A DNA stretch of 64,000 nucleotides from Bradyrhizobium sp. CB82 (lineage in GTDB: Bacteria > Pseudomonadota > Alphaproteobacteria > Rhizobiales > Xanthobacteraceae): positions 8,995,001 to 9,059,000 of the forward strand of contig NZ_CP121650.1 of the NCBI RefSeq assembly GCF_029714405.1. The letters are read 5' to 3'. Positions 5,311 through 32,974 of this stretch are shown here, in pieces. The notes below the pieces were generated by a model. It did not search any database. It had not been told where the DNA came from and saw nothing but the letters and a program-made list of their open reading frames with translations. The position numbers and the translations under genes were made by a program. The first letter of the stretch is position 1. Every line of letters begins with the position of its first letter.

Positions 5311-5311
5311 G

Positions 5312-6016: not shown

Positions 6017-6063
6017 TCGTCACAACTATCGCGTTCCTCAATTTAGAGTTTCTGGGATCCTTA

Positions 6064-10865: not shown

Positions 10866-10930
10866 TCTAGCCGGAGACCGGCTGACGAGGACACATCGGC
10901 ATCAACGACAAAGGATGCGAACGAAAGCAA

Positions 10931-13915
10931 ATGAATCCGGTCCCTGCGCCACCAAGCCGGCTGACGCCCGTCAAGCTCGCCAACGTTATCCGTTTTCATC
11001 TCGGTGAACTTTCTGCCCGCAACGGCCATCACGAATTCGAAAGCCTCTGCCGGCATCTGGCGCGGGCGCGGATCTATCGAAACATAATACCCGCGACAGG
11101 CCCGGTCGGCGCCGGCGGCGACCAAGGACGCGATTTCGAGACGTACAGCACCGGGGCCAAGATCGGTCTCTTCGACCGCAACGTGTCGGACGGCAAGGCC
11201 GTATTCTGCTGTTCATTGGAGAAGCGGATAGAAAAGAAGGTGAGGACCGACGTCGCTACTGCGACGAAAGGAGGCAAGGTCGAAGAAATATTCTGCTTCT
11301 TCGGACAAAACCTACCGATCGCCAAGCGTCATGCGCTGCAGAAATGGGCCACCGAGAACTACGGCGTGGCCCTGGAGATATTCGACGGGACGGCAATCGC
11401 CGAGCTGCTGGCGGACCGCGACGTCTTCTGGATCGCACAGGAATTCCTGCACATTCCTGCCGAGATCCTCCCCGCGGTGGCTGACGAAGACGGTTGGTAC
11501 GGGACACTGCTGCGACGTTGGATCTCCCGCACGCCACTGCCGCTCAGTGCCGCGGACTTCTCGGAGATCAAGTTCGGTCTACGTCGCGCCACGTTCCACG
11601 AGGAGGCGCGACCGAATCTCCTGCTCTGGATCGGATTGATGGAGAGGTTCCTCGAGCCACCCGCTCCCAGGCACCTGCAGCGCTCCGCCATCTACGAAAT
11701 CGCCGTCGCCCACTTACGCGGAAAAGGCGAAATGACGAGCCAGGCAGACAGGTTGAGGAATTATTTCACCGATCTGGGGGATTGGCTCGCCGTCGCGGAT
11801 CTAAAGGACGCGGCCGTCCTTCAGACCTATGCATTCGGTGGATTGCTTTTGAGACAGCTCGACATGGAGCCGGCCGATCTTTTCGCCTGGCGGACAAACT
11901 TGCTTTCCCTTCTCGATCGGGAGATCGCGACTGCGCCGGGGCCAGGACGACGGAGCGGTCTGCTCGACATTCGCGGCTATCTGAAGCTGCTTCCGGACGG
12001 CCCCGGGGCGGAACCTTCCGTCGATCAGACGTTCGACGATTGGGAGCGGATGCTGGAGGAAGCTGAAGAGACGCCGCTGTTTCCGATCGCCGAGTTCGCA
12101 AGTCATCTCGCTAAGATGACCGGTACACTGGGACACCACCCCCGATTCGAGAAGTTCGCCGAACGCGTCGACGAACTGCTCGCCAAGCGACAAGGACTAG
12201 TGCTCGCGACCGAAAGCACGTTCGAGCGCGCTCTGGCGTTCTACGAGGCCGACGACCTACTGCGCGCCGTGCGCGATCTGCATCGTATCCAAGTCCGGTG
12301 GTTCACCGGGGACTCGATGGTACGCTTTCAGCAGGCGAGCTTCATGCTCGCGACGTCGTACCTCGAACTCGGCGCGGCTTACGCGGCAAAGTATGTGGCT
12401 CTCGCGGCTGCCTACCTCGCCCGCTCGTCCGACGACCTCAAGGTCGCGTCCACGGCCCCGAAGTTGCTTTTTTGCGCGGCGGACGCCGAGGACGGAGCTG
12501 GGAATTCCGTGTCGTATCTGCATCTTCTCCTGTTCGCGATGCTCGCTCACTTCGAGCAGGATCCCGATCCACTCGAACAGCAGAAGCACTCGGATATCGA
12601 AAAGCAACTTGGCCAGGCAGCGGCACTCCGCGGCTTCGCCGCCCGGTCGGGACCATCCCAACTCGCGGCGGTCGATCGCGCGCTGTCTATCTGGCCCGCC
12701 CCGTTTCGAGAGTCGGTCGTTCGGGCGTCGCTCGATACCGAAGGATTTTGGACCAAAGGTACATGGGACGAAGTCTGGAGTACGATGGAGCAAAGTTTCC
12801 TAGATCGGCCATTCGGTGATCTAGGCGCTTCGCGCACCATCAGTTGGTCCGCTCTCGGAATCCGTTGGACCGCTGGCTTCATCAACGATATTGAGACCAT
12901 CGCTGTAGCCGAAGAGTTCGTCGCGAGCCTGCAGATAGCGCTGGTCTCATTAGCCGGCCGCGACCTCTGTCTGTTGTCGGCGCGCGTACATCTTAACATC
13001 TCGCTCTCCGAGAAGCGGCCTCACATCAAGATCGACGAGAGCAACACCGGCAACGGCACGGTAACTGTGGATCTTGGAATCCGCAGAGAGCTGTCCGGAA
13101 AGGACCTGCGCCGCTGGTCATCCGAAACCCTCGCGCCGATCGCCGGAGTGCTCAATCTACTCTCGGTCCTCCCGACCGATCGCCTGGAGACCGTCATTAA
13201 GGAAGCCTTCCTCGACGCTGCCGGCAAGATCCACGTCGCGCTTCCCTATCGCGAACTTCATCGAGAATGGGTGGACGACGCGAACTTCGACCGGGATGGA
13301 CGACAGGCAGCGCAGCCTCTGCTGGCGGACCGCAAGTTCGAGTGCCGCAGCCATCCGCAGCTCGATCCCAAAGGGGGGCCTGGACCCGGCTACTCGCAAG
13401 AGGAAGCGTTGAAACGGATCGAGATCAGGTACGAAAAATGCGTCACCTGTATCGGGTTCACGGCCCGGCGTCTCATGGCTCATCCCGAACGGCGTAAGCT
13501 CCTGACCGAATGGCGCACCGAAGGCCTGAAGGATTGGGAGATCCTGTCGATCATCGCGAATGCCGCCATCAACCTTCGACACCCTCTGACCGACGATATC
13601 GCGTCCGAGACGGATGCCATGGAAAGGCTCCGTCCGGCCTTGGAGTTCGTCGAACGGCCGGACTCCGCGATCGATCCCGATCTCATCACAGACGAGATGC
13701 TGCGCGGACACCGTCGTGCATTCCAGATCGCATATCTGAGGTGGTGGGATCTCGATGTCCACTTCTCAAGGGTGGATGAGAAGTCGCTCGAAACTTTTCT
13801 GATCACGCGATACGGCCTGAGGGGCGACGACGTCGACCATTCGGATGCATTCGGATGGGAGGCGACCGGAAGGGACAGGGGAAGGGGCGAGGAAGAAGGG
13901 GGTCGGCCAGGCTAG
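10931..13915 (+). CDS. Large protein with N-terminal Mrr-like nuclease domain and helical-repeat body
   Basis: 994 residues, starting 65 nt after jetD in the same direction. Residues about 35-130 have the layout of a restriction-endonuclease-like (Mrr-type PD-(D/E)xK) fold: FESLCRHLAR, then GAGGDQGRDFET with Asp64/Asp68 as candidate metal ligands, then KAVFCCSLEK with Glu97/Lys98. The ExK spacing is not perfect, so activity is uncertain. Residues about 200-650 are alpha-helical and resemble TPR/superhelical repeats. A beta-rich part (about 690-800) and a C-terminal helical domain (about 830-960) follow. It resembles defence sensors in which a nuclease is attached to a repeat scaffold. It may act with Wadjet or independently; the family is not recognised. 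Confidence 0.6.
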   Translation: MNPVPAPPSRLTPVKLANVIRFHLGELSARNGHHEFESLCRHLARARIYRNIIPATGPVGAGGDQGRDFETYSTGAKIGLFDRNVSDGKAVFCCSLEKRIEKKVRTDVATATKGGKVEEIFCFFGQNLPIAKRHALQKWATENYGVALEIFDGTAIAELLADRDVFWIAQEFLHIPAEILPAVADEDGWYGTLLRRWISRTPLPLSAADFSEIKFGLRRATFHEEARPNLLLWIGLMERFLEPPAPRHLQRSAIYEIAVAHLRGKGEMTSQADRLRNYFTDLGDWLAVADLKDAAVLQTYAFGGLLLRQLDMEPADLFAWRTNLLSLLDREIATAPGPGRRSGLLDIRGYLKLLPDGPGAEPSVDQTFDDWERMLEEAEETPLFPIAEFASHLAKMTGTLGHHPRFEKFAERVDELLAKRQGLVLATESTFERALAFYEADDLLRAVRDLHRIQVRWFTGDSMVRFQQASFMLATSYLELGAAYAAKYVALAAAYLARSSDDLKVASTAPKLLFCAADAEDGAGNSVSYLHLLLFAMLAHFEQDPDPLEQQKHSDIEKQLGQAAALRGFAARSGPSQLAAVDRALSIWPAPFRESVVRASLDTEGFWTKGTWDEVWSTMEQSFLDRPFGDLGASRTISWSALGIRWTAGFINDIETIAVAEEFVASLQIALVSLAGRDLCLLSARVHLNISLSEKRPHIKIDESNTGNGTVTVDLGIRRELSGKDLRRWSSETLAPIAGVLNLLSVLPTDRLETVIKEAFLDAAGKIHVALPYRELHREWVDDANFDRDGRQAAQPLLADRKFECRSHPQLDPKGGPGPGYSQEEALKRIEIRYEKCVTCIGFTARRLMAHPERRKLLTEWRTEGLKDWEILSIIANAAINLRHPLTDDIASETDAMERLRPALEFVERPDSAIDPDLITDEMLRGHRRAFQIAYLRWWDLDVHFSRVDEKSLETFLITRYGLRGDDVDHSDAFGWEATGRDRGRGEEEGGRPG

Positions 13916-14311: not shown

Positions 14312-15520
14312 ATGTCGAATGGACTTCAGATCGGCGTGCAGTCGGCCAAAGTCGGAGAGGCTCTGGCCAATTACTCTCTCGCCGACACCCCCTTGGCCGA
14401 AGGGCAGATCGGCGAAGAAGAGGCCCGCGCGCCTGCGTACGGGTCTGGCTTCTACGATGATCAGGAGATCTGGCGCGATCTTCTAAGACTTCACTCGCAC
14501 ACGAGGTTGGACGAAGGGCGGCCCGGGCGGCGGACAAGTTCACCCGATCCGAACAGATGGGACACCGTAAGCACTCTTTATAAGGTCGCGGTGAGCGAGT
14601 GGGTCGCTCGCGTTCCCGGTCTCTACTGGCTACCGGGCTCGCAGCGCATGCGGACCGTGCACCCCTCTCAGATCGAATCGAAGAGCGACGGCTGGCTGAC
14701 CTACACTCCAAGAGGAAAATCGCAAACCGTTTCAGGTGGCGTCGGTACGTTGAAGCTGTCACCTTCGGAAAGCGGTTACCGGCTGGCGACCTTGACCGCC
14801 TCCTGTAACGCTTCGACCGGGGTTCCCGCACTCATCTCTCCCGATGTCTGGGACCACCATCGACTGCGGGAAGGCAGCGTCATCGTTTGTGGCGCGACGC
14901 GCTGGAGGGCGATGCCGCTGCAATGGGCGGCGCAGTTTCCGATCATGCAGCAATTGCCGCGTGGCTGCCTCGTCCTAGATAACGTGGAGAACGTGCTGGA
15001 CGTCGAGGATGGGGCGCCGATCCAAGCCCATCCGTTTTCGATCATGGAATACTGGGACGGCCCCGTCCGGCTGTTCGACTTCGTCTACGCCACCGCCGAT
15101 ACGAGAGACGAAGGGTTTAGAGCCGACCTTTCCCGCTTTTTCGAGGCCTATCGTCTGGCCAACGATCGTGAGGGAAATTATCTCACCGCAGCCGACATCG
15201 CCGAGCCTATGTGGGACGCCGAATTCACCAGTCCGGAGTCCCTGCGACGAGATCAGCGCGCCCAGCTCCGCCTGATCGAGCGTCGGGTCGAAGATACTAT
15301 CCGCGGCATCGACTTCACGGAGGTCCTCGTCAAGCGTCTTTCGCAAGCCGCGGGCTTGACGGACCTAAAACGGATTTCCGCAAATGCAGGAATCGAATGG
15401 CGACGATGGTCTCAGGGAGGAGCGATCGGAGATGAGGCCACACGTCTGGTCGAATATGCAATCTCCTCCGGGAAGCAACAAGCGTTGTTGTACTCGCTTC
15501 AGTATGAGGACGGCCTTTGA
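14312..15520 (+). CDS. Hypothetical protein of an EAD-type conflict cassette, C-terminal EAD-like domain
   Basis: 402 residues. ATG 14312 (MSNGLQIGVQSAKVGE) is chosen over the in-frame upstream start because GGGAGG lies about 7 nt before it. Residues 1-300 match no family I recognise; they are mostly beta-rich (LYWLPGSQRMRTVHP, then VIVCGATRWRAMPLQW). The last 70 residues (FTEVLVKRLSQAAGLTDLKR, then ISSGKQQALLYSLQ) have the size and helical pattern of an effector-associated (Death-like adaptor) domain. Its stop overlaps the next gene (TTGA). Its partners carry EAD1, so homotypic EAD contacts are likely to assemble the three products. The EAD assignment here is inference. Confidence 0.55.
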   Translation: MSNGLQIGVQSAKVGEALANYSLADTPLAEGQIGEEEARAPAYGSGFYDDQEIWRDLLRLHSHTRLDEGRPGRRTSSPDPNRWDTVSTLYKVAVSEWVARVPGLYWLPGSQRMRTVHPSQIESKSDGWLTYTPRGKSQTVSGGVGTLKLSPSESGYRLATLTASCNASTGVPALISPDVWDHHRLREGSVIVCGATRWRAMPLQWAAQFPIMQQLPRGCLVLDNVENVLDVEDGAPIQAHPFSIMEYWDGPVRLFDFVYATADTRDEGFRADLSRFFEAYRLANDREGNYLTAADIAEPMWDAEFTSPESLRRDQRAQLRLIERRVEDTIRGIDFTEVLVKRLSQAAGLTDLKRISANAGIEWRRWSQGGAIGDEATRLVEYAISSGKQQALLYSLQYEDGL

Positions 15521-16494
15521 GTAAGTGGGATTATCAGGCGCTCGCCCAACTCAATGAGATTCTCGCGAACCTCTATCCATTGGACAGCGATGCTCGCAGG
15601 ATAGCTACGAAGGTTGGCCTACGGACCGCGTTCATCACCTTTGAAAGCAAAGCGATCAGCACGTGGTTCAACATCCTTCAGTACGCCAAACCGCAAGACA
15701 AAACGGATGCCATCGTCGATGCGGCGCTCGAAGAGTTTCCGGGAGACGAATCGCTCAAGCGCGCAAAGGAAGGGCGCCCGCCGCCCACCATCAAAGGACC
15801 GGAGGCGACAAACTGGAATGGCCCACAGGCATCGGGCCTGGAGAAGATAATCGGCCAGAAGAGTACGCTCGTGCCTATCAACTACCTCCAGATCGGTCTT
15901 ACGCGATCAAAGTCGGTCGTTCGGGTAAAGCGGGAGGATGGCAGTTCCGGATCGGGATTCATTACGGAAGCAAACGTCCTCATCACCAACAACCACGTGC
16001 TACCCACGAAGGATTCGGCTCGTGGAGCAGTCGTTCAGTTCAATTATCAGCAGACGGTGGACGGGCTCGATGCAAAGATCGAGGAAGTGGGTCTGCTACC
16101 CGAGACGCTACGCACCTCAGTGGCCGACGATTGGACAGCCGTGACGCTTGAAGGCGATCCCGTATCCAGATGGGGCGCGCTGGCCTTGAAAAGAAAAGCA
16201 CTCGCCGTTGGCGATCACGTCAACATCGTTCAACATCCCGGCGGCGGGCCGAAGCAAATCTCGCTATTCTCCAATGTAGTCGTCTTTGCGGGCAACGGTC
16301 GCGTGCAGTATCTGACCGACACCCTGCCCGGCTCATCGGGATCGCCCGTCTTCGACTCGGCGTGGGACGTTGTGGCGCTCCATCACAGCGGCGGCTGGCT
16401 CACCGAGCCAAATAGCGCCTCAAAGTCCACCTACTACCGCAACGAGGGCATTTCGATCGACCGCATCCTCGATGGACTTTCAGGATCGCCCTAA
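15517..16494 (+). CDS. EAD1-trypsin-like serine protease
   Basis: 325 residues, read from a TTG that overlaps the previous stop (TTGA) and is preceded by GAGGA. Residues about 10-82 match effector-associated domain 1 (LANLYPLDSDARRIATKVGL, then NILQYAKPQDKTDAIV, then ALEEFPGDESL). Residues about 125-320 are a trypsin-like protease with His160 (ITNNHV), Asp204/205 (DDWTAV) and Ser276 (GSSGSPVFD), so the triad looks intact. There is no signal peptide, so it is cytoplasmic. EAD1-trypsin proteins are known components of predicted NTPase-regulated conflict systems, where EAD-EAD contacts recruit the protease. Substrate unknown. Confidence 0.85.
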   Translation: MSKWDYQALAQLNEILANLYPLDSDARRIATKVGLRTAFITFESKAISTWFNILQYAKPQDKTDAIVDAALEEFPGDESLKRAKEGRPPPTIKGPEATNWNGPQASGLEKIIGQKSTLVPINYLQIGLTRSKSVVRVKREDGSSGSGFITEANVLITNNHVLPTKDSARGAVVQFNYQQTVDGLDAKIEEVGLLPETLRTSVADDWTAVTLEGDPVSRWGALALKRKALAVGDHVNIVQHPGGGPKQISLFSNVVVFAGNGRVQYLTDTLPGSSGSPVFDSAWDVVALHHSGGWLTEPNSASKSTYYRNEGISIDRILDGLSGSP

Positions 16495-16518
16495 CGACGG
16501 TGAATCCGAGGAATGCCG

Positions 16519-18723
16519 ATGACGGCTTATTTCGAACTGACGGATCGCCTCGCCGACGCGTTTCCGAAAGACGACGATTGGCTGCGCGTTCCGACGCAAG
16601 CGGGCATGTCGACGGGCAGCATTGTGTTGCAAGGTCCCGCAATATCCGCATGGTCGAATATCCTGAAGTCGGCTCTCGATCAGAACCGACTCGAAGGATT
16701 GAGGGATCGTATTGCGTCCGAGCGACCAGACATACTGCCGATTTTCAATCGTTTCGCGGACGAAGCCTCCAAAGGGCCGTTGGAGGCGCTCGATCTCCCC
16801 TCGTTGGCAAACATCCTGATCCGTCCGGGAGACCTCGAAGCGAACAAGCTCTCTGCAACGCTTGATTTCGGCGACGCAATCCCCCCGATAATCTGGAATA
16901 TCGCGCTTTCCGGTGCCGCACCTTCGCGGTCTATGGTCGATCCGCTGCTTTCCCGAACGAACATGGGTCCCGCCGTGGCTCGACGCGATCAATTCCTGTC
17001 GGAGTGCGCCCGCGCTTTGGCTCCGCTGAAGCAGCGCCGGGGCGAGGTCGCGAACCGACTGAATGCTTTGCAGAGCCAGGTGTCGGCGATCGAGCGCATG
17101 ACGCGCCCGTACGAACCGTCTCCTCCGTCCCAACTCACTGATATTTCGGACGATCAGAGAAGGTACCGGTCAGATCGCTATTCGGAGCAAGTGAGCCAGT
17201 ATCGAAAGGACCTCTCGAGCTACGAAACCAGTCAAGGAACGTTGCCGAAACTTCGGCAGGATTGCGACGCCGCCTTGGGAGAATTGAGACAGGTCGAGGC
17301 CGCAATTGGCTCACGGGAGGCGCAGACAAACGCGGGCTTGCTGCCGTTTTCAGAGGACATCGAAAGAGCACGGGACGCCGACATACTCCTCCTGCTCGAC
17401 AGTCTCGCCAATTCCGGTTTGCGTGCCTTCGACGAGGGCGATCCGCTCAAGGGGTTCGCGGTCTTCTTGGCCAATGGTTGCGTCCTCGAGGCTTTGGTAA
17501 AAATCTTCGTCCAACCCGCGGCCGCCACCGAAGCTGGTCGCAGATTTGGCGGAGCCGCGGACGCCGCCGGCGATGCGATGCGACGGAGCATCGCTGAAAT
17601 CGTTCGCCCATGTGTCGGCAGCGGGACGCTGGTCAAAATCGAGTTGGAGAAAAACGAAGAAGAAGCCAAGGCACTTCTCGAGCGTCTCGGCAGCTTGCAG
17701 ACGGCGCAACTCGAAATGGGTCTTAGCCGCACAGCCAGCCTGCTGAATCAAGGCTCTCCTCCGCTACCGTCGCTGGGAGAAATCGAAAAGCCTCAGGAGT
17801 TGGAGCAGCTCCGTCAAGACTTGGCCGACATGCAGGCTTCGGCGAAGCTTAACCTTTCGCAAGTGCACGCCGAGCTCGATGGGGAAGCATCGACATTCGC
17901 CGCGACGTCCTCGGCCGCTGAAGATGCCAAAAGCACGCTCGCGGCCATCGCGGCCTCCGCTTCGGCCAACGCGGCATTGCTGGAAAAGACGTGGCGCCTT
18001 CACGGCCTCCTCGCTAAGGCCAGTGCCTGCACCAGCCTGCCCAAGTACGCCCGCACGCTTTGTCTCGCTATCCGGCAAGAATTCCCGAGGCGAACGGGAG
18101 TGTCGCTGGATGCGCTGATTACCAAAGCGCGATCAACGGAGCTCGGGTATGCGGACGCGCGGTCGGCCGTGGAGGGGCATATCTTGACCCGCTATCGCGA
18201 GTCCCGGCCCCAGCTCGAGGCACGAATGCGCGAGGACGCCTCGCGCCTAGAAGAGATCTCGAAGCTGTTGGCAAGTATAGACACACGGTACCATTCGACG
18301 GGAGAGAAGTATCGGCAACGTATCCATACCTACGTCGTCTCTTCCTACATTCCTGGAATCGACTTTCTCTTCGCGCTCGGGATGGCGCTCACCGCATCCA
18401 CACTTCTGGCACTGCTGGATAGCGACAAAGCTCCATACGCGAATCTACGAAGTTATGCGCTCAAGGCCTTTCCTTGGGCGATCGTAGGCAACGTCGCCTC
18501 GATCGCGGCCGTTGGAAGCCTGTTGGCCTTGCAATATGCAGGCATCCTTTCGGCCGAAGATTATACCCAACTACTGTACGGTTTCGCCCTCGCCAGTTGC
18601 GTCGCGCTCCTGATCTCTATTCGCAACATGCGACTCGTCAGTGGGCACAGGCTGCAGCCTGACCCCGGGACAGCGAACGGCGTACCACCTTCCCTTCCTC
18701 AAGATACGGCGCCGCCCAGGTAG
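16519..18723 (+). CDS. EAD1-coiled-coil protein with C-terminal membrane segments
   Basis: About 734 residues. ATG 16519 fits the GAGG ribosome-binding site better than the in-frame ATG at 16513. The N-terminus (LTDRLADAFPKDDDWLRVPT, then ISAWSNILKSALDQNRL) is an EAD1 domain like that of the protease 24 bp upstream. The body is long alpha-helical and coiled-coil (about 160-260 and 400-600, rich in Glu, Gln, Ala). Three hydrophobic segments lie near the C-terminus: FLFALGMALTASTLLALL, then a stretch ending VGSLLALQYAGIL, then LLYGFALASCVALLIS. It is probably a membrane-anchored coiled-coil effector or scaffold that recruits the EAD1-trypsin and the upstream gene product. Function inferred. Confidence 0.72.
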   Translation: MTAYFELTDRLADAFPKDDDWLRVPTQAGMSTGSIVLQGPAISAWSNILKSALDQNRLEGLRDRIASERPDILPIFNRFADEASKGPLEALDLPSLANILIRPGDLEANKLSATLDFGDAIPPIIWNIALSGAAPSRSMVDPLLSRTNMGPAVARRDQFLSECARALAPLKQRRGEVANRLNALQSQVSAIERMTRPYEPSPPSQLTDISDDQRRYRSDRYSEQVSQYRKDLSSYETSQGTLPKLRQDCDAALGELRQVEAAIGSREAQTNAGLLPFSEDIERARDADILLLLDSLANSGLRAFDEGDPLKGFAVFLANGCVLEALVKIFVQPAAATEAGRRFGGAADAAGDAMRRSIAEIVRPCVGSGTLVKIELEKNEEEAKALLERLGSLQTAQLEMGLSRTASLLNQGSPPLPSLGEIEKPQELEQLRQDLADMQASAKLNLSQVHAELDGEASTFAATSSAAEDAKSTLAAIAASASANAALLEKTWRLHGLLAKASACTSLPKYARTLCLAIRQEFPRRTGVSLDALITKARSTELGYADARSAVEGHILTRYRESRPQLEARMREDASRLEEISKLLASIDTRYHSTGEKYRQRIHTYVVSSYIPGIDFLFALGMALTASTLLALLDSDKAPYANLRSYALKAFPWAIVGNVASIAAVGSLLALQYAGILSAEDYTQLLYGFALASCVALLISIRNMRLVSGHRLQPDPGTANGVPPSLPQDTAPPR

Positions 18724-19039: not shown

Positions 19040-20011
19040 TCAGGCAAGATCAATCGGCAGATCATAACGGCGCTTGTGCTCGTCCAGCACGGTTATGTGC
19101 GCCTGCCCTTTTTTGATGTGAGTATTGAAGTGCAGCCTTTGCGTGCTGCTACGTTGCCCCGAGGGAACGACGAGCGTCGATCGGCTCGATGCGCCGGGTG
19201 GTTCGATCTCGAACCTAGCGGTACTGCGCCTTTCCTTCGGAATCCAATCGGCCGGCGGAACGTGACCAGCCTCAACCTCGACATCGACGTCCAAGCCATC
19301 GCCGCGCTTCTGAACACTGCTGTTCCGAACGCAGACGAAATACGCACTCGGTATCACCGTGTGACACATGTCCGAAAGGTTGGATGGCGCCGCCAATTCC
19401 GCATTAGGCGCCGCCGCCCGCGTCGTGCATTTGATCGCAAATAACTTCCTCACGTAGCGATCAATCGGACGCGCGTGACCACGGAATCGCCACTCGTCGA
19501 AGTCGCATGTCCCCCATTGCCCCACGGATACCGAAGTCGCGACACCCTGCGCCAGAAGTGCGGCGTAGAAGGTTCTTAGCAATTTGTTCTCGCGTAGAGA
19601 AACGAGCGCTTGTCCGATCGCACTCATAAGCCAAGCCGGCGCACTTTTACGATCGATAGCGAGCAACTCCATCAACTCGGCGACATACCTTCCATCAGGA
19701 GATTCGGCCGTCGCGCCGCCCGCGGGCCGCCAACCAGCTCTTGGCCCGGTCAAAGCATGTCCACCTTCGAAAGGAGCTCCACGGCCGGACTTCGGGGAAA
19801 TGGATCGGCGAGGACCGGTCAATAGCACTTCGCCGGCCAGCGCGACTTCCAGCCCGTCGAAGGCACGTAGGAAAATCGTGCTCGGAGAGAATTGAAGCGA
19901 AGCCTGTTCAGGCGCGTCGCCGACACCCGCCAAAATCCAGATATGCCGACCGTCGTGCTGCCGAGGCTGCCGCGAACCGATCCGACCAGATCTCGTTGGT
20001 CCAAAACTCAT
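19040..20011 (-). CDS. Hypothetical protein (about 323 aa)
   Basis: The frame opens at a TTG (20047), but the first ATG is at 20011 (MSFGPTRSGRIGSRQ) and is preferred. The N-terminal part is short beta strands and Gly/Pro-rich loops (RHIWILAGVG, then FEGGHALTGPRAG). The middle is helical (ALVSLRENKLLRTFYAALLA). The C-terminal 90 residues are beta-rich and end in VLDEHKRRYDLPIDLA, suggesting a small sandwich domain. No family is recognised. It lies downstream of the RHH-like gene on the same strand, so the two may be co-transcribed. Confidence 0.5.
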   Translation of the reverse strand: MSFGPTRSGRIGSRQPRQHDGRHIWILAGVGDAPEQASLQFSPSTIFLRAFDGLEVALAGEVLLTGPRRSISPKSGRGAPFEGGHALTGPRAGWRPAGGATAESPDGRYVAELMELLAIDRKSAPAWLMSAIGQALVSLRENKLLRTFYAALLAQGVATSVSVGQWGTCDFDEWRFRGHARPIDRYVRKLFAIKCTTRAAAPNAELAAPSNLSDMCHTVIPSAYFVCVRNSSVQKRGDGLDVDVEVEAGHVPPADWIPKERRSTARFEIEPPGASSRSTLVVPSGQRSSTQRLHFNTHIKKGQAHITVLDEHKRRYDLPIDLA

Positions 20012-20135
20012 GCCGCACGAAACCCGAAAAATGATGCACAAAAACAACTAGGCTGAGCCGAGACGGTTCTTACGGCGGAAAGCTCCAATACTGGCATTTT
20101 TCGCGGGCGGATGGGGAATAACCTGAAGCTTAGGG

Positions 20136-20456
20136 TTACCCCTTCAGCAAGAAGTGTTCCAACGTGCGCTGCTCGATTTCCGCCAAAATCTCGAGAGCCG
20201 CGATATGCGGTGCAGTCCCGCCGTAGCCGGCGGCGTAGACCTCCACGGCGGTTAATAACGGCACCGGCAGGCTGACTACGATCTTGCCCCTGTTCGGGGG
20301 CGATTTCGGAAGAATCAGAGGACCTTGCGAGGGCCTGGCCAACCGGCGAACGAGCAGAATCCTCGTCAAACTCGAGGCCGAAAGCCCGCATTTCACAGCA
20401 TATTTCTTGAAACGGTCGGCGTCGATCACGTCCAGGTATGGATATATCTTCGGCAT
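20136..20456 (-). CDS. Small ribbon-helix-helix-like protein
   Basis: 106 residues. The N-terminus (MPKIYPYLDVIDADRFKKYA) followed by KCGLSASSLTRILLVRRL looks like a ribbon-helix-helix/MobC-like DNA-binding unit. The second half (RGKIVVSLPVPLLTAVEVYA) could be a second strand-helix unit followed by a helical tail. Such proteins are usually small repressors or mobilisation accessory factors. It is divergent from the CHAT/L22 operon across a 343-bp gap that contains an inverted repeat (20515-20529), so control of that operon is possible but unproven. Confidence 0.55.
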   Translation of the reverse strand: MPKIYPYLDVIDADRFKKYAVKCGLSASSLTRILLVRRLARPSQGPLILPKSPPNRGKIVVSLPVPLLTAVEVYAAGYGGTAPHIAALEILAEIEQRTLEHFLLKG

Positions 20457-20799
20457 ATCCCGGATCGCGCAACGTCATATGGGGTGCCCCGCCCAGCCGA
20501 TCGCACACAGTGTAGACTCTTTTGGAGTCAAGCGCAACTGCGGTTCCGGTGGACAACTCAAGACTGGGTGCCTGCGGCCGCGCCATCCCCGACCATTCTA
20601 TCGCCACGCCGTCCTCGCTTTTTCCGCAGGCCGGCCCGTCTTGGCTAACCGACGTCGGCGCGGTTGCGGCGACCGCTGGCAAACGTGCGCCAGCAGCGTC
20701 GGCAGCGCGTTCGTCAGGAATAGCGGTTGATATGAAACGACGTTTAGGTAATGCTTACCGAAGATTGTACCTTCGCTTTTTGCCAGCAGACGCGTTTTC
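20457..20799. promoter_or_regulatory. Divergent promoter region of the RHH-like gene and the CHAT/L22 operon
   Basis: 343-bp gap between divergent genes, so at least two promoters are expected here. It contains the perfect inverted repeat GACTC-N5-GAGTC at 20515-20529, a candidate operator for the RHH-like protein encoded 59 bp away. No clear sigma-70 pair was found by eye. Confidence 0.35.
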
Positions 20800-21921
20800 A
20801 TGCCTCTCCCGCTCGTCACGATTTCTCTGCAACACCCCGCCATCGGACACATCACTGGAAGGGTCACGCACGAGGACACCAAGCGTACGCTCACGTTCGA
20901 GAGCCGTGACGTCATCACTACTCTCCACTCGTATGCGGATGCCATCCGACTCAAGGTCGAAAGATACATGGCACGGATCGGCAACCAGAACGACGAGCTA
21001 AGGGGGGCGGCCAATTTGGGCTGGCTCTTCCTTGACTCCCTGCTGGGAAAGGTATGGGACGCGGCCGGCGGACAGCCAGATCCGGCGTTCAAAGCCGAAG
21101 CGCTCGCATGGCTTTCCGCCAAGGGCGGAATGGTCGTAATCGACTCCGAATACCTTCATGCCCCGTGGAATTTCCTGCACCTCATCAAACCCGGGGCTTC
21201 CGCCAACGTCTCCGATTTCCTTGGAGCCCGACAACTTGTTCTTCAACGCGTCAATTTGAGCGGTGGACTTCCACCAGTGTGGCCGGTCCGCAGAATGTTC
21301 GCCATTCACGGTAACGACAAGCCTATGATTGCCGAAATGGATGGCATCGAAAGCCGCGCAAGCGGCAACGCAGTCGCTCTGCAGCGATTTCCAAAAGATA
21401 TGAACACGGTCATCGCGCACTGCCCGACCGAGTTCGACGCATTATGGATGACGATGGATCCGAGCGTCATACACGTGGCGAGCCATCTAATTCCGCCGCT
21501 ATCCGTCCACGGTCGACCGGGGCCAGATTGGAGCGCGGCGATCCAAGTGGCAAACGACGTCTGCTCCGAGAAACTGGAGGTGGGCGACGTTCTAGCGAAC
21601 GTTCAGTCGAGCCGAGCGGCGATGGAGCTTGGCTTCTTCAATCTGTGCTCGTTAGGTAAAGGTACGATGCTCTTGCATGCTGGCGTGGCCGCGGCCTTCG
21701 CCGTGCGCGTCGGATGCAGCATCTTCGTGGATATGTTACTGCACAGCGATTTGGCGGAGAAATTCGCAAGCGCGTTCTACGCGGCCTATTTGACGGGCGA
21801 AGATCCGATCAAGGCCTATGGCAAGGCCAAACAGGCCGTCAGCGTCTCCGACGAAGAAACGGTGCGGGCGCTGTGCTACCGCTTCACGTTCGGCGACCAC
21901 ATCATGGACATGGCGGCCTGA
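20800..21921 (+). CDS. CHAT-domain cysteine protease
   Basis: 373 residues, with the caspase-like CHAT fold spanning about 110-370. The catalytic dyad appears to be His229 in VIHVASH and Cys283 in GFFNLCSLG. The latter replaces the usual SAC-x-SG, so it is a divergent [16 protein letters not shown] is the family's recurrent segment upstream of the catalytic core. There is no signal peptide. The stop overlaps the ATG of the L22-fusion gene (TGATG), so the two proteins are probably made together and may act as enzyme and substrate, or enzyme and sensor. CHAT proteases in bacterial conflict systems cleave partner or host proteins once activated. Confidence 0.78.
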
Positions 21922-23087
21922 TGGACGCACGAGTCGAAGAACGCCATCGGCACAAGCACGCTTTTCAAGCAGCGGAATCGCATCACGTTCGTCGCAAAAT
22001 CGCGAAAGAGAAACGCAAGTCGGTCGCTACGGTCGAAGCCAGGGCGACGGCTAGGATGCTCCGCGTGTCGCCTCAGAAGCTAAATCTAGTTGCGGCTTTG
22101 ATCCGCGGCAAGTCCGCGGTGAGCGCGCTGTCGGACCTGCAGTTTGCGCGTAAACGTGTCGCAGTAGACGTCAAAAAATGTCTTCAATCGGCCATAGCGA
22201 ACGCCGAGAACAATCACGATCTTGATGTAGACCGCTTGGTGGTCAGCGAGGCTCACGTCGGCCAGGGCCTCAAGATGAAGCGTTCCGCGGTGCACGGCAG
22301 AGGCCGCTCCGGCCGCGTGGATAAGCCATTCTCGCAGTTGACCGTTGTCGTACGAGAATCCGAGCCGGTCGTCGCAAAGAGGCGCCCGAGGGAGGTTTCG
22401 CGCGTGTCTATTGAACCGCCCCAGAAAAGGAAGATGTCGGTCCTCGAGGCAATTCGAGGCCTGCAGGCCTGTCTACAATCGCGCCCCGATTACGACCGGA
22501 CACGCATGGAACTGGCACGCCTTGCCGATCACGCCTCTCGACCGACGAAAGATGGCAACTCGAACAGATTTGCATTGGCCGCCGCTAGGGCAGCCGTCCC
22601 GGTGCTGATCGCCGGTCCGGAACAGGAACGACGGGCATCGTTCACGTTGTTGTCGGTCGCGCTGAAGGAGTTCGCGCCGACACAGACCATCGCCGGATTT
22701 CTGCAAAGCGAACGCGTCCCGTGCGTGACGGAGATCGTGACAGATCATCCTGAATTATCGACGATCGGGCAGCGCAAACCTTTGAGGATCGTCGCCGCTC
22801 TGAGCCGGACCATACGAGTGATCGACTTAAAGCTCGAGAGGCCGACGGTGCTCGACACGTTGAATCCTTGGCCAGCCGCTCTCAAGTTTTCGATACGTGT
22901 CGGGGCTCCACGAGCCCGCATCGAGCCGCCTACGGAAAACGTAGTCGAGTTTGCGGCAGGAAAAGATCAGGCGGCAGCTTCTTTCGTCGTCATTCCGACC
23001 GAAGCCGGAGCACTTCCCGTGACCATCGATTTTCTATTGATGGGAAGCCGCTTCGCCCGCCGGACTCTCCAGTTCGTGGCAAAATGA
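21921..23087 (+). CDS. Ribosomal protein L22 (uL22)-like domain fused to an unknown C-terminal region
   Basis: 388 residues. The ATG overlaps the CHAT stop. Residues 1-37 are a basic, His-rich extension. Residues about 38-146 are an almost canonical uL22: [69 protein letters not shown]. From memory this is closest to rhizobial L22, and the loop that lines the exit tunnel is full length, with changes near its tip (SAVH in place of a Phe/Pro/Arg-type segment). Residues about 172-388 are unrelated: a helical part ([15 protein letters not shown]), then a beta-rich C-terminus ([20 protein letters not shown]). No other ribosomal gene is near, so this is not the S10 operon. It probably links the CHAT protease to ribosomes. 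Confidence 0.8.
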
Positions 23088-23217: not shown

Positions 23218-25959
23218 TCAAACTGGGCCGGAAAATACCCACCCGCCCCAGTTTGATTTGTCAGGCCATTTGCGGCGCGTGCGGACTTGCGCCTGTCTAA
23301 GCGCCTCGACCACTGTTTCACCAGCCTCAATAGCCGCGTACATCTGCCCAACGAGGTAGGCCGTCGCCTTGTCCGGCAGCTTCCACAGCGTCGTGACGAC
23401 GGCCTCTGCCCCCGCCGCGTGAAAGGCTGCTTGAAGACCCAACACGCCTTCGCTCGCGTCGGCCGAGGCCACCCCGGAATCGCACGCCGATATGACCACG
23501 AGCTTCACACCGGTAAGATCGAGGCGCGCGATATCACGCGCCGAGAGCAATGACGGAGGCGCGCCGATAGCTCCTTCTCCAAGAACAAGTGACGTGCCGG
23601 CCAAAGGATCGCTATCGGCGGCTCGAACAGCCCTTCCGCGCGTCCCACCATGTGGGCTGCCCGGTCCCGCAACCATTCCGTGGGTTGCGATATGAACGAT
23701 GCGCGGACGCCGCGCGAGCTGCCGCAGAACGGCGGCGTACTCCGCCTTCTCTTCCATGAGCACGACGGGAGACCGTCGCCCCATCAATCTCTCGACGACC
23801 GATATTTCCTCTCCGACCCAAGGCAGCGGCTCAAGATCTCGTTCCGGTCCAAACCTTGTGACTCCGATGAGCAGGGGCGAACTCGATGCCACCACCTCCT
23901 TTGGTTCGCGGTTGAGAGCATACGCGTCGCGCGGTTGCGCGATGCAGAATGCATCTGTGAGCATTCGGTCATCCCCGAGAGGTAGAGCGCCGATCGGATA
24001 TCTGGACAAGCCATGATCCGGTAGCCAGATTAGCGACGCAGCGCCCTCGGAATGCCGAGTCAGGTTTCGAGCGAATTGGCCGAGTTCGTTCGAAACGCCC
24101 GTTTTGGTCTTATCGTCAACCGCCCAGCTGGAGAACGACTGTTCGAGACAGGTCGAATCTCCCAACTCGATCAATATCGTCCGTTGGCGAAATCGAACGA
24201 AGAAGAGTCTAAGACGGCGTCCTGCGAATTCGTAAGTCTCTGTCAGCGCCAATGAAACAGAGTCGGAAACCGGCCCTTGATTGCTCTCGGGTTTGCTCCG
24301 CGAACTTGCGCCAGATCGAATGGACTTCCAGATCGCCGTGGCCAGTCCACGGAATGCGAGGATAGTATCCAATAGCCGATCAAGCGCTTTTGCGGATCTA
24401 CGACCGCTCTGAAGAACGAGTATGATGTACAGTTCGATGTGATGGCGCGTCGTTCTGATTTGCCCGAGTTCGAGTAGGCCATTTCGTCGGTCGACCAGCC
24501 GCGCGATCAGCGCTGCCTCTTTCCGAATGCAGGATTCAAGGACCTTCAGAGCCCGAGAGCGATCGCCGCACTGTGCTAGAGCTTCGGCTAACTCACCTTC
24601 CAACAACAGTCTCTTGGGATGGTCGCGCGGCACCTGATCGCCCATCAGCCGTATGGCTTCCTGCCGAATCGCCAAGCATCGCGGCATTTCTCCCAAGTCC
24701 CATGCTATCCGGCCGCGCACCTTGAGCGTGTCTACATTGCCGAACCAGCCTTCCCCGTAGCGCTCGGCGATAATCTGAGCTTCATCAAGCAACTGCTCGG
24801 CCACCGCGAAATTGCTGAATTGCCTCTCGACATCGGACAACAGCAGCCGGACTTCGATCCGCTCGTCTGCATCGTCATCCTTTCTCGTTTCGAGAAGATC
24901 GTAAGCACAGCGCAAGCTCTTGCGTGCAGCTCTCAATTTACCGGCCCTGCGCTGACATTCGCCCTCCATCGAATGAGCCTCAGCCTCCAACCGCGCCGAG
25001 AATTTCGCGGCAATCTTTTGCGCGCGTCGGCAATTACGTAGCGCCCGCGCTATGCGTCCGGCATCGCTGCTTTGGTCGGCGAGATGGATGAGCGCCCGCA
25101 CGTAGATGGCGCTCTCCATTACTCGGGCTTTTCGGCCGAACGTGATCGCCTCGTTAAGAAGAGCCTGGGACGAAGCGGGATTTCCTCGCGTACGCTCGCT
25201 ATGAGCGGCGTTTATCAGTACGGTAATCAAGTCGGAAGGCGGCGCCTCGTCGCTCTTTCGCGTGAATTCGATCGCATCGAACAGCAGCCTAGACGCTTCT
25301 TCGAAACGCCCCTCGGACAGTCGCATTACGCCGAAGTCCGAGAAAATCATACTGAGTTGAAACCAGTGCTTTGGATCAGATCGCGGACAGGCCATTTCTG
25401 CCTCGCGATAGATTCGGGCTGCCAGATCGAACTGGTGAAGATCCTGAAACGCGGTCGCCAGCGCACAAAGGGTGGAGCCGGGGGCGATCGAATTGGGTCG
25501 CACGACGAACGGCAGCGACGTCGCCACCCGCAGAAGCAGAGGAATGGCGACATTCGGCCTGTTACGTTCGATGCATTCCTTGCTGCCGGTGTTCAATGCA
25601 TCGACGGATGCAGCCGCGCGCTTGAAGGCCGCCGCGCCCTCTGCCTCCATCTTGTAGTGTGCTGCCACGATCATCGCGGCGACATGGGCCTCGAGATTAT
25701 GAAGTTCAGTCGACGTCGCCGTCGCGAGCGCGAGCTCCGCCGTTCCCGCATCTACTTCCGCCTTGACGCGCTCGAGCAACGTCCTCGTCTCGTCCGGCGT
25801 CCAATAAAAGCTCGATCGATGAATGAGGTCATCGAGCGTCGGACGCCTGGAGACCGTGCGCGCCGAACGAGCGATCCGAACGATGGCAGCTCGCGTCGGT
25901 AATCGGAGGGGCCGAAGATCAATTTCAACGGCCACGATAATAGCTCTTCTCGGATTCAA
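23218..25959 (-). CDS. TPR-CHAT protease
   Basis: 913 residues when read from the TTG at 25959, which has GAGGA about 4 nt upstream; a GTG at 25935 (VAVEIDLRPL) is an alternative. Residues about 60-560 are tetratricopeptide-like helical repeats (LDLHQFDLAARIYREAE-type units, e.g. FDLAARIYREAE and FAVAEQLLDEAQIIAE). The C-terminal CHAT domain (about 600-913) has His760 (IVHIATHG) and Cys826 (VVISACDSG), the canonical dyad, and ends WGGWVFSGPV. There is no signal peptide. It is the third gene of a minus-strand operon behind the subtilase (17-bp gap). TPR-CHAT proteins include the Csx29 protease of Craspase, but no CRISPR locus is present here. Confidence 0.9.
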   Translation of the reverse strand: MNPRRAIIVAVEIDLRPLRLPTRAAIVRIARSARTVSRRPTLDDLIHRSSFYWTPDETRTLLERVKAEVDAGTAELALATATSTELHNLEAHVAAMIVAAHYKMEAEGAAAFKRAAASVDALNTGSKECIERNRPNVAIPLLLRVATSLPFVVRPNSIAPGSTLCALATAFQDLHQFDLAARIYREAEMACPRSDPKHWFQLSMIFSDFGVMRLSEGRFEEASRLLFDAIEFTRKSDEAPPSDLITVLINAAHSERTRGNPASSQALLNEAITFGRKARVMESAIYVRALIHLADQSSDAGRIARALRNCRRAQKIAAKFSARLEAEAHSMEGECQRRAGKLRAARKSLRCAYDLLETRKDDDADERIEVRLLLSDVERQFSNFAVAEQLLDEAQIIAERYGEGWFGNVDTLKVRGRIAWDLGEMPRCLAIRQEAIRLMGDQVPRDHPKRLLLEGELAEALAQCGDRSRALKVLESCIRKEAALIARLVDRRNGLLELGQIRTTRHHIELYIILVLQSGRRSAKALDRLLDTILAFRGLATAIWKSIRSGASSRSKPESNQGPVSDSVSLALTETYEFAGRRLRLFFVRFRQRTILIELGDSTCLEQSFSSWAVDDKTKTGVSNELGQFARNLTRHSEGAASLIWLPDHGLSRYPIGALPLGDDRMLTDAFCIAQPRDAYALNREPKEVVASSSPLLIGVTRFGPERDLEPLPWVGEEISVVERLMGRRSPVVLMEEKAEYAAVLRQLARRPRIVHIATHGMVAGPGSPHGGTRGRAVRAADSDPLAGTSLVLGEGAIGAPPSLLSARDIARLDLTGVKLVVISACDSGVASADASEGVLGLQAAFHAAGAEAVVTTLWKLPDKATAYLVGQMYAAIEAGETVVEALRQAQVRTRRKWPDKSNWGGWVFSGPV

Positions 25960-25976
25960 TCATCCTCGAAGCGGCC

Positions 25977-27152
25977 TCATTCCGGAGCCAACGCGAAGCC
26001 TCTCTCGGAGTCGTCGGGATCGAAGTCCGCCACGGAAGTGGGATCGGCGGACGTCAGAAGCTTTTCTCCGACAGATTCGGCATTTGGTCGGACTTTTGAC
26101 AAAGCGATCTTCTGCCACCAGAGCGCGGCCAGACCGGCGACATGGGGGCACGCCATGCTCGTTCCGCTCATGACCGCGAATCCATTTTTCTTTCCTGCCG
26201 ACAGAACATCCTGGCCAGGTGCGCAGATCTTAGCGCGGCCATTGGAGAAGTCAGCGATCTCGAATTTGCCTCCAGCGTCACGTACGGCAGCGACCGAGAT
26301 AACTCTCGACGCTGCCGAAGGCAGTGACGCCGATATTCGAAACCGAGGGTCCTTCTGCCTTTGACTTTCGTTGCCAGCCGCAGCGATCACCATAGGACCC
26401 CGCCCGAATGATTTCCCCGCGTCAATCATCCCCATCATGGAGTCGAACATCCTTAGGTTATCTTTGAAGTGCTCGAGCCCGATCGAGACGGCAAGTTCCT
26501 TCGGGTAGCCTTGTTGTTCGAGGCGGTCCACCATGCCGGGAAAATCGAAACCGAGTGACATCGAGACAATGTTGACGCCTTTGTCCGCCGCCCAGTTGAG
26601 CGCCCTAAAGATAGATAGGGAGTCGCCGCTCCCGTCGTTCTTGAAGACTTTCGCTATGAAAGCCTTGCTGATGTTTCGAGCAATCCCGATGCGAGTACCT
26701 CCGGAGTCTTTGCCGAATATGGTGCCCGCACAATGCGTCCCATGTCCATCATCGTCGCCGTTCCCGGATCCGCCGAAATCCTCCTCTTCGATATCCACGC
26801 CAAAGAACGAAGGATGATTCCTATCGATTCCGGTGTCGAGGATCGCGACGGTGACACCGGCCCCGTCGAGCTTCGAGCGGTCGGCGCGGACAGCCGAGAT
26901 TCCCCAAGCGGTCGGCAAAACGTCGTTCACACTCAACTGCCGCTTCTCGATCGGGCTTATCAGAGCCGTCGGCATGATGAGACCACAATCCTCGACGTTC
27001 GGGTCATTTTCGATGTCCGATACGTTCTTCTTGGAAAGATCGGCTTCATAGATCCGGATGCTGGCACCATCCGTTCGTGGACCCGCGCTCGGCGACGCTC
27101 CGCCGGAACGCAGCCGCTTCGGGGCTTCGAGGATCGCATATCTTCGCAGCAT
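25977..27152 (-). CDS. Subtilisin-like serine protease (S8), cytoplasmic
   Basis: 391 residues with an intact S8 triad: Asp106 (AILDTGID), His137 (DGHGTHCAG) and Ser332 (SGTSMACPHVAG), with oxyanion Asn261 (AAAGNES). Residues about 30-65 resemble a short I9-like propeptide (IRIYEADLSKKNVSDIEND). No signal peptide is visible, unlike most secreted subtilases, so it probably acts inside the cell. It lies 38 bp downstream of the propeller-CHAT gene and 17 bp upstream of TPR-CHAT, which points to one operon and possibly a proteolytic relay. Confidence 0.9.
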   Translation of the reverse strand: MLRRYAILEAPKRLRSGGASPSAGPRTDGASIRIYEADLSKKNVSDIENDPNVEDCGLIMPTALISPIEKRQLSVNDVLPTAWGISAVRADRSKLDGAGVTVAILDTGIDRNHPSFFGVDIEEEDFGGSGNGDDDGHGTHCAGTIFGKDSGGTRIGIARNISKAFIAKVFKNDGSGDSLSIFRALNWAADKGVNIVSMSLGFDFPGMVDRLEQQGYPKELAVSIGLEHFKDNLRMFDSMMGMIDAGKSFGRGPMVIAAAGNESQRQKDPRFRISASLPSAASRVISVAAVRDAGGKFEIADFSNGRAKICAPGQDVLSAGKKNGFAVMSGTSMACPHVAGLAALWWQKIALSKVRPNAESVGEKLLTSADPTSVADFDPDDSERGFALAPE

Positions 27153-27190
27153 GTTCAGAACCCTATGATTTCGGTTTTTCTAGCCATTTT

Positions 27191-28084
27191 CTATTCTAGG
27201 ACGAGGCGCCTGGTCGGATCCCCGTAGAACACGTAGGATGACCACGTTTGCGTAGCGCGTGGACCCATTTCCTTCAGGTGAAGTCTCGCCAAACGGAGCG
27301 CTTCCGCGAACGGAACGCCTTCGAGACGATTTCGGCGCACGATCCGCCACCAGAGATCGTAGGAAGGAGGAAAAAGGCGCGCATAGAATGCCGATGCGAA
27401 GCCGGCAGCGAAGTCGTCCCCGATCGGCCACTGCGCTCCAATGAAATAGGTCGCGTTAGTGACGAAGGCGGAAGCGAAGCCATAGACCTGCGCGCCGCGC
27501 TCCCATGTGGCCTCTCGCGAGGTGCCGCACCCGTTGATGAAAGCTAGAACCAGGTTGTGCGGCTTCGCTTTGAGGGCTGCCGCGACTTCCTCGGCAGTGA
27601 TCCGGTCATCCAGGATGGGCAGGTAGCTCGCTTCGGCCGCGTCCGGCAGAAACTCGGCATGCCCCGCATAGTGAAAGAAATGTGAGCAGCAAATCGCTTC
27701 GAGCACCTCTTCTTTCGTCGCCTCCGGACGAACTAACACGACCTCCGCCCCCCAAGATCGCGCCGCATCGGCGACCGCCTTCGCTTCGACCGACGCGTTC
27801 GGGAGATCGGTTTCGATCTGTTCTCCAACCATCTCGCGGAGGCGAGGTGCGAAAACTGCGACTCTAAGTCTGGACGATCGAGGTGGCTTTGCCTGAACAA
27901 GAACGTCCGCCGAGACCGTTCTTCCTATCGCGTACTTGAGCTGCATAAGGCTGCCTGCACCGTCGTCGGCCAACTCCAAAGGGAACCAAAGTAACGTTTT
28001 CGATAGATCCACACTCATCGCTCCGTTTCCGGGTTGGCTCGTGACGAAGCGGAGATTTTGAGGAAGCGCCTCGTCGCCTAGCAT
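27191..28084 (-). pseudogene. C-terminal CHAT-domain fragment of an IS-split membrane propeller-CHAT gene
   Basis: 297-codon fragment carrying a CHAT domain with His in HYAGHAEF and Cys in LAFINGCGTS, ending WSSYVFYGDPTRR. The apparent ATG (complement of 28082-28084) lies in the terminal repeat of the IS701 element, and the next codon comes from the CTAG target site. The fragment is therefore the 3' part of the gene that resumes at 29506. Removing the IS and one CTAG gives ...ATT CTA GGC GAC... with no frame change (...VAPIL-GDEALPQNL...). It may still be translated from the IS-borne ATG, but it would lack the sensor half. Confidence 0.8.

Positions 28085-32897: not shown

Positions 32898-32974
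<77 letters not shown>

What the first reader, a model, noticed from the sequence alone, without database searches (positions are those of the whole stretch)
21921..23087. Ribosomal protein L22 domain fused to an unknown region, in an operon with a CHAT protease
Residues about 38-146 read as near-complete, canonical bacterial uL22, including the loop that lines the nascent-peptide exit tunnel, with substitutions near the loop tip. The domain has a basic His-rich N-terminal extension and a C-terminal region of about 215 residues that is not ribosomal. The ATG overlaps the CHAT stop (TGATG), so the products are co-translated. None of the S10-operon genes that normally surround rplV are present, so this is an accessory paralogue. 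Possible roles: (1) it assembles into ribosomes or pre-ribosomes in place of L22, and the C-terminal region brings the CHAT protease to the translation apparatus; (2) it is a decoy for phage factors that target L22 or the tunnel; (3) it is the substrate whose cleavage releases a toxic or signalling fragment. I know of no described defence system built on an L22 mimic.
Basis: partly seen in the sequence, partly recalled or inferred. Interest (0 to 1): 0.93.

Follow-up and report, generated by a model that had tools for sequence, protein, structure and literature searches.

The report
CHAT-like protease paired with ribosomal L22
A mobile two-gene module in a Bradyrhizobium-like soil bacterium pairs a caspase-like protease with a protein made of a near-normal ribosomal protein L22 joined to a protease-associated domain, which may point the protease at the ribosome.

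Summary
ORF 21921-23087 (388 aa) has a full uL22 domain (42-145), a basic N-terminal extension and a non-ribosomal C-terminal half. Its ATG overlaps the stop of a divergent CHAT-like protease gene. A housekeeping rplV stands elsewhere in the genome (S10 operon), so this is an accessory paralogue. It is not a one-off: four of 116 database hits share L22 plus this C-terminal half. The fused L22 domains form one clade (UFBoot 99) among housekeeping L22s of the same family and keep 52 of 56 conserved columns. New: the C-terminal half is helices plus an Ig-like sandwich, probably related to DUF7363, which in relatives precedes CHAT in one chain behind a hydrolase-like DUF7379. So L22 stands in an effector or targeting position of a split X-Ig-CHAT module. 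The setting is a low-GC, defence-rich region beside a tRNA, with a Wadjet system. Best reading (unproven): a conflict system that directs a CHAT protease to ribosomes or 23S rRNA through L22. Rivals: CHAT-cleaved pro-effector, decoy, resistance copy. No function was tested.

The parts
20800..21921 (+). Divergent CHAT-like protease gene, 373 aa; predicted catalytic His229 (21484-21486) and Cys283 (21646-21648)
   Evidence: ORF; H229 and C283 invariant in 4 of 4 aligned sequences; hhalign to genus CHAT proteins, prob 95.9, E 6.3e-9, 266 columns; no Pfam hit alone
21919..21923 (+). TGATG stop/start overlap (translational coupling inferred)
   Evidence: same overlap in L005
21921..23087 (+). L22-fusion gene, 388 aa
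21921..22031 (+). Basic His-rich N-terminal extension (residues 1-37); P0002, P0003 and P0004 also have a basic extension, P0006 as called starts inside the L22 domain
   Evidence: alignment
22044..22355 (+). uL22 domain, residues 42-145
   Evidence: PF00237 E 6.4e-33, 52 of 56 conserved columns kept
22275..22325 (+). Tunnel-loop segment, residues 119-135 (MKR and GRGRSG kept; tip S122, H125)
   Evidence: its identity as the tunnel loop is recalled knowledge of L22
22359..22421 (+). Variable linker, residues 147-167
   Evidence: varies in sequence and length; pLDDT below 50
22422..22709 (+). Helical domain, residues 168-263
   Evidence: five helices, blocks 171-260 with pLDDT 69-89
22716..23084 (+). 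Ig-like beta-sandwich, residues 266-388, DUF7363-like
20136..20456 (-). 106-aa gene conserved beside the pair on plasmid pBsp27S5a; role unknown
   Evidence: dN/dS 0.136
19040..20011 (-). 323-aa gene conserved beside the pair on plasmid pBsp27S5a; role unknown
   Evidence: 81.7% identity; dN/dS 0.091; found only in the own genome of 233 genus genomes
10931..13915 (+). 994-aa gene, also near the pair on the plasmid, where it is annotated as two genes; linkage to the module uncertain

Best explanation
The two genes encode one split conflict module of the X-Ig-CHAT kind, in which X is a captured uL22. Shown by sequence: L22 joined to helices and an Ig-like domain, an overlapping CHAT-like gene, conservation, a plasmid copy, a defence-rich setting. 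Likely: the Ig domain is related to DUF7363. Inferred: the C-terminal half binds the CHAT protein (in relatives DUF7363 and CHAT are one chain), and the L22 domain still binds 23S rRNA, so that a dormant caspase-like protease is posted on, or tests the state of, 50S or pre-50S particles. A disturbance of translation or ribosome assembly, for example by a phage, would activate CHAT, which would cut ribosome-associated proteins or its own partner and stop growth. Ribosome docking, trigger and target are all untested.
For: L22 keeps 52 of 56 conserved columns and the MKR and GRGRSG loop motifs; dN/dS 0.168 for the domain and 0.118 for CHAT against the plasmid copy: L22 function seems to be selected for, as expected for rRNA binding. 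One clade, UFBoot 99, among the family's housekeeping L22s: one capture, then retention down to 44% whole-protein identity. C-terminal Ig domain against DUF7363: E 1.1e-5, controls 0.19-0.5, 0 of 100 column shuffles reach the score. DUF7363 precedes CHAT in one chain, behind DUF7379, in L046 and L048, both above Pfam cut-offs. CHAT assignment. Plasmid carriage; low-GC region with integrase, tRNA and Wadjet. Extended L22 is built in the M. pneumoniae ribosome model (PMC9534751, passages). A conflict system docking on RNA polymerase through GreA/B-C has been predicted (PMC8195603, passages).
Against: No evidence that the fusion enters ribosomes, is expressed, or binds the CHAT protein; no complex was modelled, and the CHAT model was poor (pLDDT 51.7). 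The plasmid copy has lost the C-terminal half yet keeps CHAT, so the tether is not always kept. The DUF7363 relation is weak with the broad alignment (P 0.048). Neighbours of such proteases can be substrates (Csx30, PMC10028731, passages; pro-nucleases, PMC12799240, abstract), which fits a rival as well. The family is rare.
Confidence: 0.4

Rival explanations
1. Pro-effector: the L22 fusion is the substrate of CHAT. Cleavage in the basic linker separates the L22 domain from the Ig half; the freed L22 (or the Ig half) acts, for example by competing with housekeeping L22 in 50S assembly.
For: Variable linker with low predicted confidence between two conserved blocks. L22 stands where hydrolase-like DUF7379 stands in relatives. 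Precedents: Csx29 cuts its neighbour Csx30 (passages); proteases activate adjacent pro-nucleases, and caspase-nuclease loci defend against viruses (abstract); Kaur 2020 proposes release of effectors by proteolysis in several conflict systems (passages).
Against: I see no conserved cleavage motif in the linker of the five aligned proteins. I know of no toxic activity of a free L22 (recalled). The plasmid copy, which encodes a near-free L22, persists.
Confidence: 0.27
2. Decoy or guarded bait: the L22 domain imitates the ribosomal target of an invader factor; its binding or modification activates CHAT.
For: High similarity to the family's housekeeping L22 including the loop; defence-rich setting and plasmid carriage.
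Against: No invader factor acting on L22 is known to me, and none was searched for; conservation of residues buried in rRNA (recalled structure) is more than a surface decoy needs.
Confidence: 0.15
3. Accessory resistance or specialised-ribosome copy: the mobile L22 gives altered ribosomes, e.g. tolerance to a tunnel-binding drug, and CHAT is only a neighbour or quality-control partner.
For: Tip changes S122/H125 in the window copy; mobile accessory copies of a translation enzyme that lower drug susceptibility are known for peptide deformylase (PMC12690207, abstract).
Against: These tip changes are absent in P0003 and L005 and the MKR motif is intact; it does not explain the C-terminal half, the overlap with CHAT, or the DUF7363-CHAT relation.
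Confidence: 0.08
4. Chance recombination product without function.
For: Rare; reduced versions exist: the truncated plasmid copy and C-terminal-only P0007.
Against: L22 plus C-terminal half is conserved in P0002, P0003, P0004 and P0006 down to 44% identity; dN/dS 0.12-0.17 against the plasmid copy; single origin.
Confidence: 0.03

Closest known systems
DUF7379 - (TCAD7) - DUF7363 - CHAT proteins (L046 in the same genus, L048 in the same order; L007 and L009 related)
   Same: DUF7363 N-terminal to CHAT in one chain; window CHAT aligns over 266 columns to their relatives; the L22 protein's Ig domain resembles DUF7363
   Different: One chain there, two genes here; DUF7379 (hydrolase-like by my reading) there, L22 plus a helical domain here
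Caspase-superfamily/EAD conflict systems of Kaur et al. 2020 (PMC7159879) and 2021 (PMC8195603), passages read
   Same: Caspase-like peptidase with variable partner domains and an alpha/beta-hydrolase neighbour; a GreA/B-C version predicted to act on RNA polymerase; an L12/ClpS domain inserted in vWA proteins of beta-propeller systems; TCAD7 (named by Pfam as ternary complex associated) occurs in relative L048
   Different: No EAD, vWA, MoxR or EACC1 domain found in this pair; all places that print 'ribosomal protein' in the two papers were seen and none concerns L22
Craspase: Cas7-11 with TPR-CHAT Csx29 and substrate Csx30 (PMC10028731, passages)
   Same: CHAT protease whose neighbour gene encodes a multidomain partner
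   Different: No TPR found in this CHAT; no Cas7-11 match among the pair and eight neighbours scanned with PADLOC
Caspase-nuclease (canu) and protease-gated nucleases (PMC12799240, abstract and outline)
   Same: Two-gene protease plus partner logic
   Different: Partner there is a nuclease, here a ribosomal protein fusion
Extended L22, e.g. M. pneumoniae (PMC9534751, passages), NCBIfam PRK12279 'L22/unknown domain fusion', and tailed L22s among the hits
   Same: L22 with an addition
   Different: The PRK12279 match here covers only the L22 part, far below its cut-off; among 42 hits without another S10-operon protein none shares the C-terminal half, most tails being Lys/Ala-rich, acidic or on short contigs (tails read by eye)

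Membership tests
Ribosomal protein uL22 | Complete PF00237 domain above cut-off | tested here: met
   113.5 bits against 28
Ribosomal protein uL22 | Gene in the S10 operon, single copy | tested here: not met
   rplV proper lies elsewhere. It is an L22-domain paralogue, not the housekeeping rplV
Ribosomal protein uL22 | Assembles into 50S | not testable with these tools
   needs fractionation or structure
CHAT peptidases (PF12770) | Passes the Pfam cut-off as a single sequence (a detection criterion) | tested here: not met
   no family at E 0.1; nor do P0119, P0120, P0121 match CHAT. Hence 'CHAT-like', a divergent relative
CHAT peptidases (PF12770) | Profile-level homology across the domain | tested here: met
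   prob 95.9, E 6.3e-9, to A5 (5 rows; the two scanned are PF12770 above cut-off). Weaker: single CHATs of the window P 5.5e-4 and 0.019; PDB CHAT 8tl0 E 0.26
CHAT peptidases (PF12770) | His-Cys dyad in the usual two motifs | tested here: met
   H229 and C283 invariant in 4 sequences, aligned with HFACHG and FINACQTG
CHAT peptidases (PF12770) | Proteolytic activity | not testable with these tools
   no assay
DUF7363 (PF24063) | Passes the Pfam cut-off | tested here: not met
   no match; so 'DUF7363-like', not filed as a member
DUF7363 (PF24063) | Profile-level homology | tested here: inconclusive
   E 7.6e-6 and 1.1e-5 with clean controls; but P 0.048 with the broad alignment, 6e-5 to 2.4e-4 on dropping one row, 0.002 for the first sequence alone. 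Likely, not proven
Type III-E Craspase | TPR-CHAT next to Cas7-11 | tested here: not met
   no TPR match; no Cas7-11 match; whether that PADLOC copy holds such a model was not checked; no ORF above 1000 aa picked between 9715 and 32139
EAD/EACC1 caspase systems | EAD or EACC1 domain on the pair | tested here: not met
   none in the pair at E 0.1; EAD1 is on the neighbouring trypsin gene 15517-16494
Anti-phage defence system | Protection against phage | not testable with these tools
   only the location is suggestive

The most novel reading that the evidence does not exclude
A ribosome-mounted immune caspase: a mobile L22 replaces housekeeping L22 in a fraction of 50S particles and places a CHAT protease near the tunnel exit, where it watches translation or assembly and kills the cell, or cuts nascent invader proteins, when these are disturbed.
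Probability: 0.25. Interest if true: 0.93.

Novelty: new variant of a known kind. Interest (0 to 1): 0.77.

Why it matters
Protease-partner pairs are a growing theme in bacterial immunity, but none I found uses a near-intact core ribosomal protein as the partner's sensor, tether or effector. If the L22 domain enters ribosomes, it gives a direct handle on how bacteria could sense damage to translation, and a natural precedent for posting enzymes at the exit tunnel. It also warns that records named 'ribosomal protein L22' or 'rplV' outside the S10 operon, as on plasmid pBsp27S5a, may be conflict genes.

Tried and rejected
Scans of genome contigs with the CHAT alignment and with the C-terminal alignment found no relative; scans of viral contigs with the CHAT alignment and with the 323-aa neighbour found none; no phage record matched the CHAT at E 0.01. 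In plasmids, 63 records match the L22 fusion (15 listed), none over 80% of it, and 1 matches the CHAT. The marginal C-terminal hit G049 (E 8.1e-4, 35%) was dropped as chance: I saw no L22 or CHAT-like ORF in its locus. Two single rplV with long open frames (G054, G837) proved ordinary S10-operon genes without a C-terminal addition. G627's second L22 was not examined. No repeat of the tRNA 3' end was found in the 60 kb upstream or elsewhere in the window, so the island borders are open. The CHAT model was too poor to use. AlphaFold left most of the L22 part below pLDDT 50, with only five rows given; no fold is claimed from it. The first comparison of the C-terminal half with whole CHAT proteins was not significant (P 0.048); the 323-aa neighbour showed no relation to it; the C-terminal profile has no PDB relative by sequence (best E 0.93). 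A promoter scan gave only chance-level matches. No paper held prints DUF7363. One search compared against a single residue by mistake and means nothing; one search holds a useless row. In one search the tree was built but the script ended in an error; it was read. In one search the dN/dS of the 323-aa gene was wrong (frame) and was redone. One search read 3 of the 5 alignment rows (duplicate names); one search repeated it with all 5.

Full report
What is there. The window lies at G000:C1:8995001-9059000 of a 10.1-Mb two-contig genome, Bradyrhizobium-like by its nearest protein (P0002, Bradyrhizobium sp. USDA 4472, 93%). ORF 21921-23087 encodes 388 aa. Residues 42-145 match all 104 positions of Ribosomal_L22. 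The upstream gene 20800-21921 ends in a TGA that overlaps the ATG. The housekeeping rplV, 128 aa, stands between rpsS and rpsC homologues (gene names by my reading) at G000:C1:5654064-5654375. The two L22 domains are 77% identical in protein; over 127 codons the genes are 63.5% identical in DNA with saturated synonymous change, so this is not a recent duplication.

How common. In the protein search 116 proteins matched at E <= 0.001 (7999 candidates were scored). Of these, 5 share the C-terminal half (P0002, P0003, P0004, P0006 with L22; P0007 without), 69 have another S10-operon protein in the same chain (frame or annotation fusions, I take it), and 42 have neither. P0006 as called begins inside the L22 domain. 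A search limited to residues 170-388 found 3 proteins, all among the five. For the CHAT, 4 proteins matched including the window's own. P0119 has a longest contig of 22,001 bases, as has P0003; P0120 one of 39,601, as has P0004, so adjacency there is inferred, not seen. On plasmid pBsp27S5a (conjugative, MOBQ) the pair is seen directly, but its L22 protein leaves the family's sequence at about residue 165 and stops soon after. Surveys: the C-terminal part in the own genome plus one chance hit of 391 genomes of the family; full-length CHAT in 1 of 265 of the genus, six more being partial hits to larger proteins; two L22 matches in 2 of 385 genomes of the class (G000, G627) and in 2 of 119 of the family, one of these (G058) being fragments on two contigs.

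Selection and origin. Between window and plasmid, dN/dS is 0.118 for CHAT, 0.168 for the L22 domain, 0.136 and 0.091 for the two neighbouring genes; dS is 0.6-1.2, so these are rough. Of 56 columns conserved in at least 85% of 31 housekeeping L22s, the window keeps 52. In a tree of 76 distinct L22 domains (82 locus copies and four fusion proteins, before duplicates were dropped) the fusions form one clade (UFBoot 99) inside a clade (100) with 13 housekeeping L22s drawn from the same family, including the own rplV. An earlier tree of 118 sequences printed 78 and 97 after re-rooting. So a housekeeping L22 of this lineage was probably captured once.

The protease. The CHAT profile matches proteins of other genomes of the genus (prob 95.9, E 6.3e-9, 266 columns). 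Of the five aligned, the two scanned (L007, L009) carry PF12770; L009 also carries DUF7363 above cut-off, L007 below it. Against single CHAT proteins of the window it is weaker (P 5.5e-4; 0.019), and the best CHAT in the PDB gives E 0.26. L046 reads DUF7379 (95-287), DUF7363 (489-596), CHAT (791-969, profile from position 101); L048 has the same order with TCAD7 between. DUF7379 is hydrolase-like by my reading of its sequence. In L043 a separate LCAT-type hydrolase gene stands upstream of a CHAT gene. DUF7363 is rare: 3 of 297 order genomes and 1 of 299 phylum genomes, one genome being in both.

Setting. GC is 57-61% left of a tRNA-Arg (32898-32974) and mostly 63-67% right of it, falling to 60% at the far end; an integrase lies at 664-1869. 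The left part holds a Wadjet type I set with all four Jet proteins (3859-10865), an EAD1-trypsin gene, a CHAT/subtilase/TPR-CHAT group (23218-28084) and a transposase. Against the plasmid, three long blocks are shared at 78-82% DNA identity (10895-13867, 19040-20580, 20724-22408), plus one of 91 bases; the EAD1 block 14231-18723 lies outside them.

Interpretation. The pair has the parts of an X-Ig-CHAT conflict protein split into two genes, X being L22. Because L22's conserved columns, including most of the loop, are kept, rRNA binding is the simplest retained function; and because the Ig domain resembles a domain that shares a chain with CHAT in relatives, it is the likely CHAT contact. This makes a ribosome-directed CHAT protease my leading model (0.4), with a CHAT-cleaved pro-effector next (0.27). 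Extensions of L22 are built in the M. pneumoniae ribosome model (passages), so an addition need not forbid assembly. That the L22 termini face the solvent near the tunnel exit is recalled, not tested.

Literature. Ten searches of the open PMC library, with listings of at most 20, showed no paper that by title and start of abstract describes a fusion of L22 or another ribosomal protein tied to a CHAT protease. Six papers were opened: passages of PMC8195603, PMC7159879, PMC9534751 and PMC10028731; abstract and outline of PMC12690207 and PMC12799240. Subscription papers are not covered.

Noticed in passing
window 3859-10865: Wadjet type I system with JetA, JetB, JetC and JetD, upstream of the module.
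   Followed up: partly
window 14231-18723: EAD1-trypsin gene flanked by a 429-aa and a 736-aa gene, outside the blocks shared with plasmid pBsp27S5a; the 736-aa protein also looks EAD1-like at its N-terminus by eye, though Pfam does not report it.
   Followed up: partly
window 23218-28084 (-): Second protease group: TPR-CHAT (913 aa), subtilase (391 aa) and CHAT (297 aa) genes on the minus strand, just downstream of the L22 module.
   Followed up: no
L005 16125-16652: Plasmid pBsp27S5a carries a C-terminally truncated L22 fusion annotated simply as rplV, from an internal start.
   Followed up: partly
L043 4845-10205: Two CHAT genes around an LCAT-type hydrolase gene in another genome of the genus.
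   Followed up: no
window 10931-13915: 994-aa gene, single ORF here, annotated as two genes on the plasmid; no family match, N-terminus restriction-enzyme-like by eye only.
   Followed up: no
G627: One further class genome shows two L22 matches; not examined, 5% contamination reported.
   Followed up: no
proteins P0084, P0086-P0088, P0090, P0092-P0096, P0099, P0101, P0102: L22 proteins with a recurrent acidic C-terminal tail of about 120-150 residues, mostly named L22 by JGI; a different extension, context unknown.
   Followed up: no
window 29497-32139 (-): 880-aa protein with two-component-regulator propeller repeats between a transposase and the tRNA-Arg.
   Followed up: no
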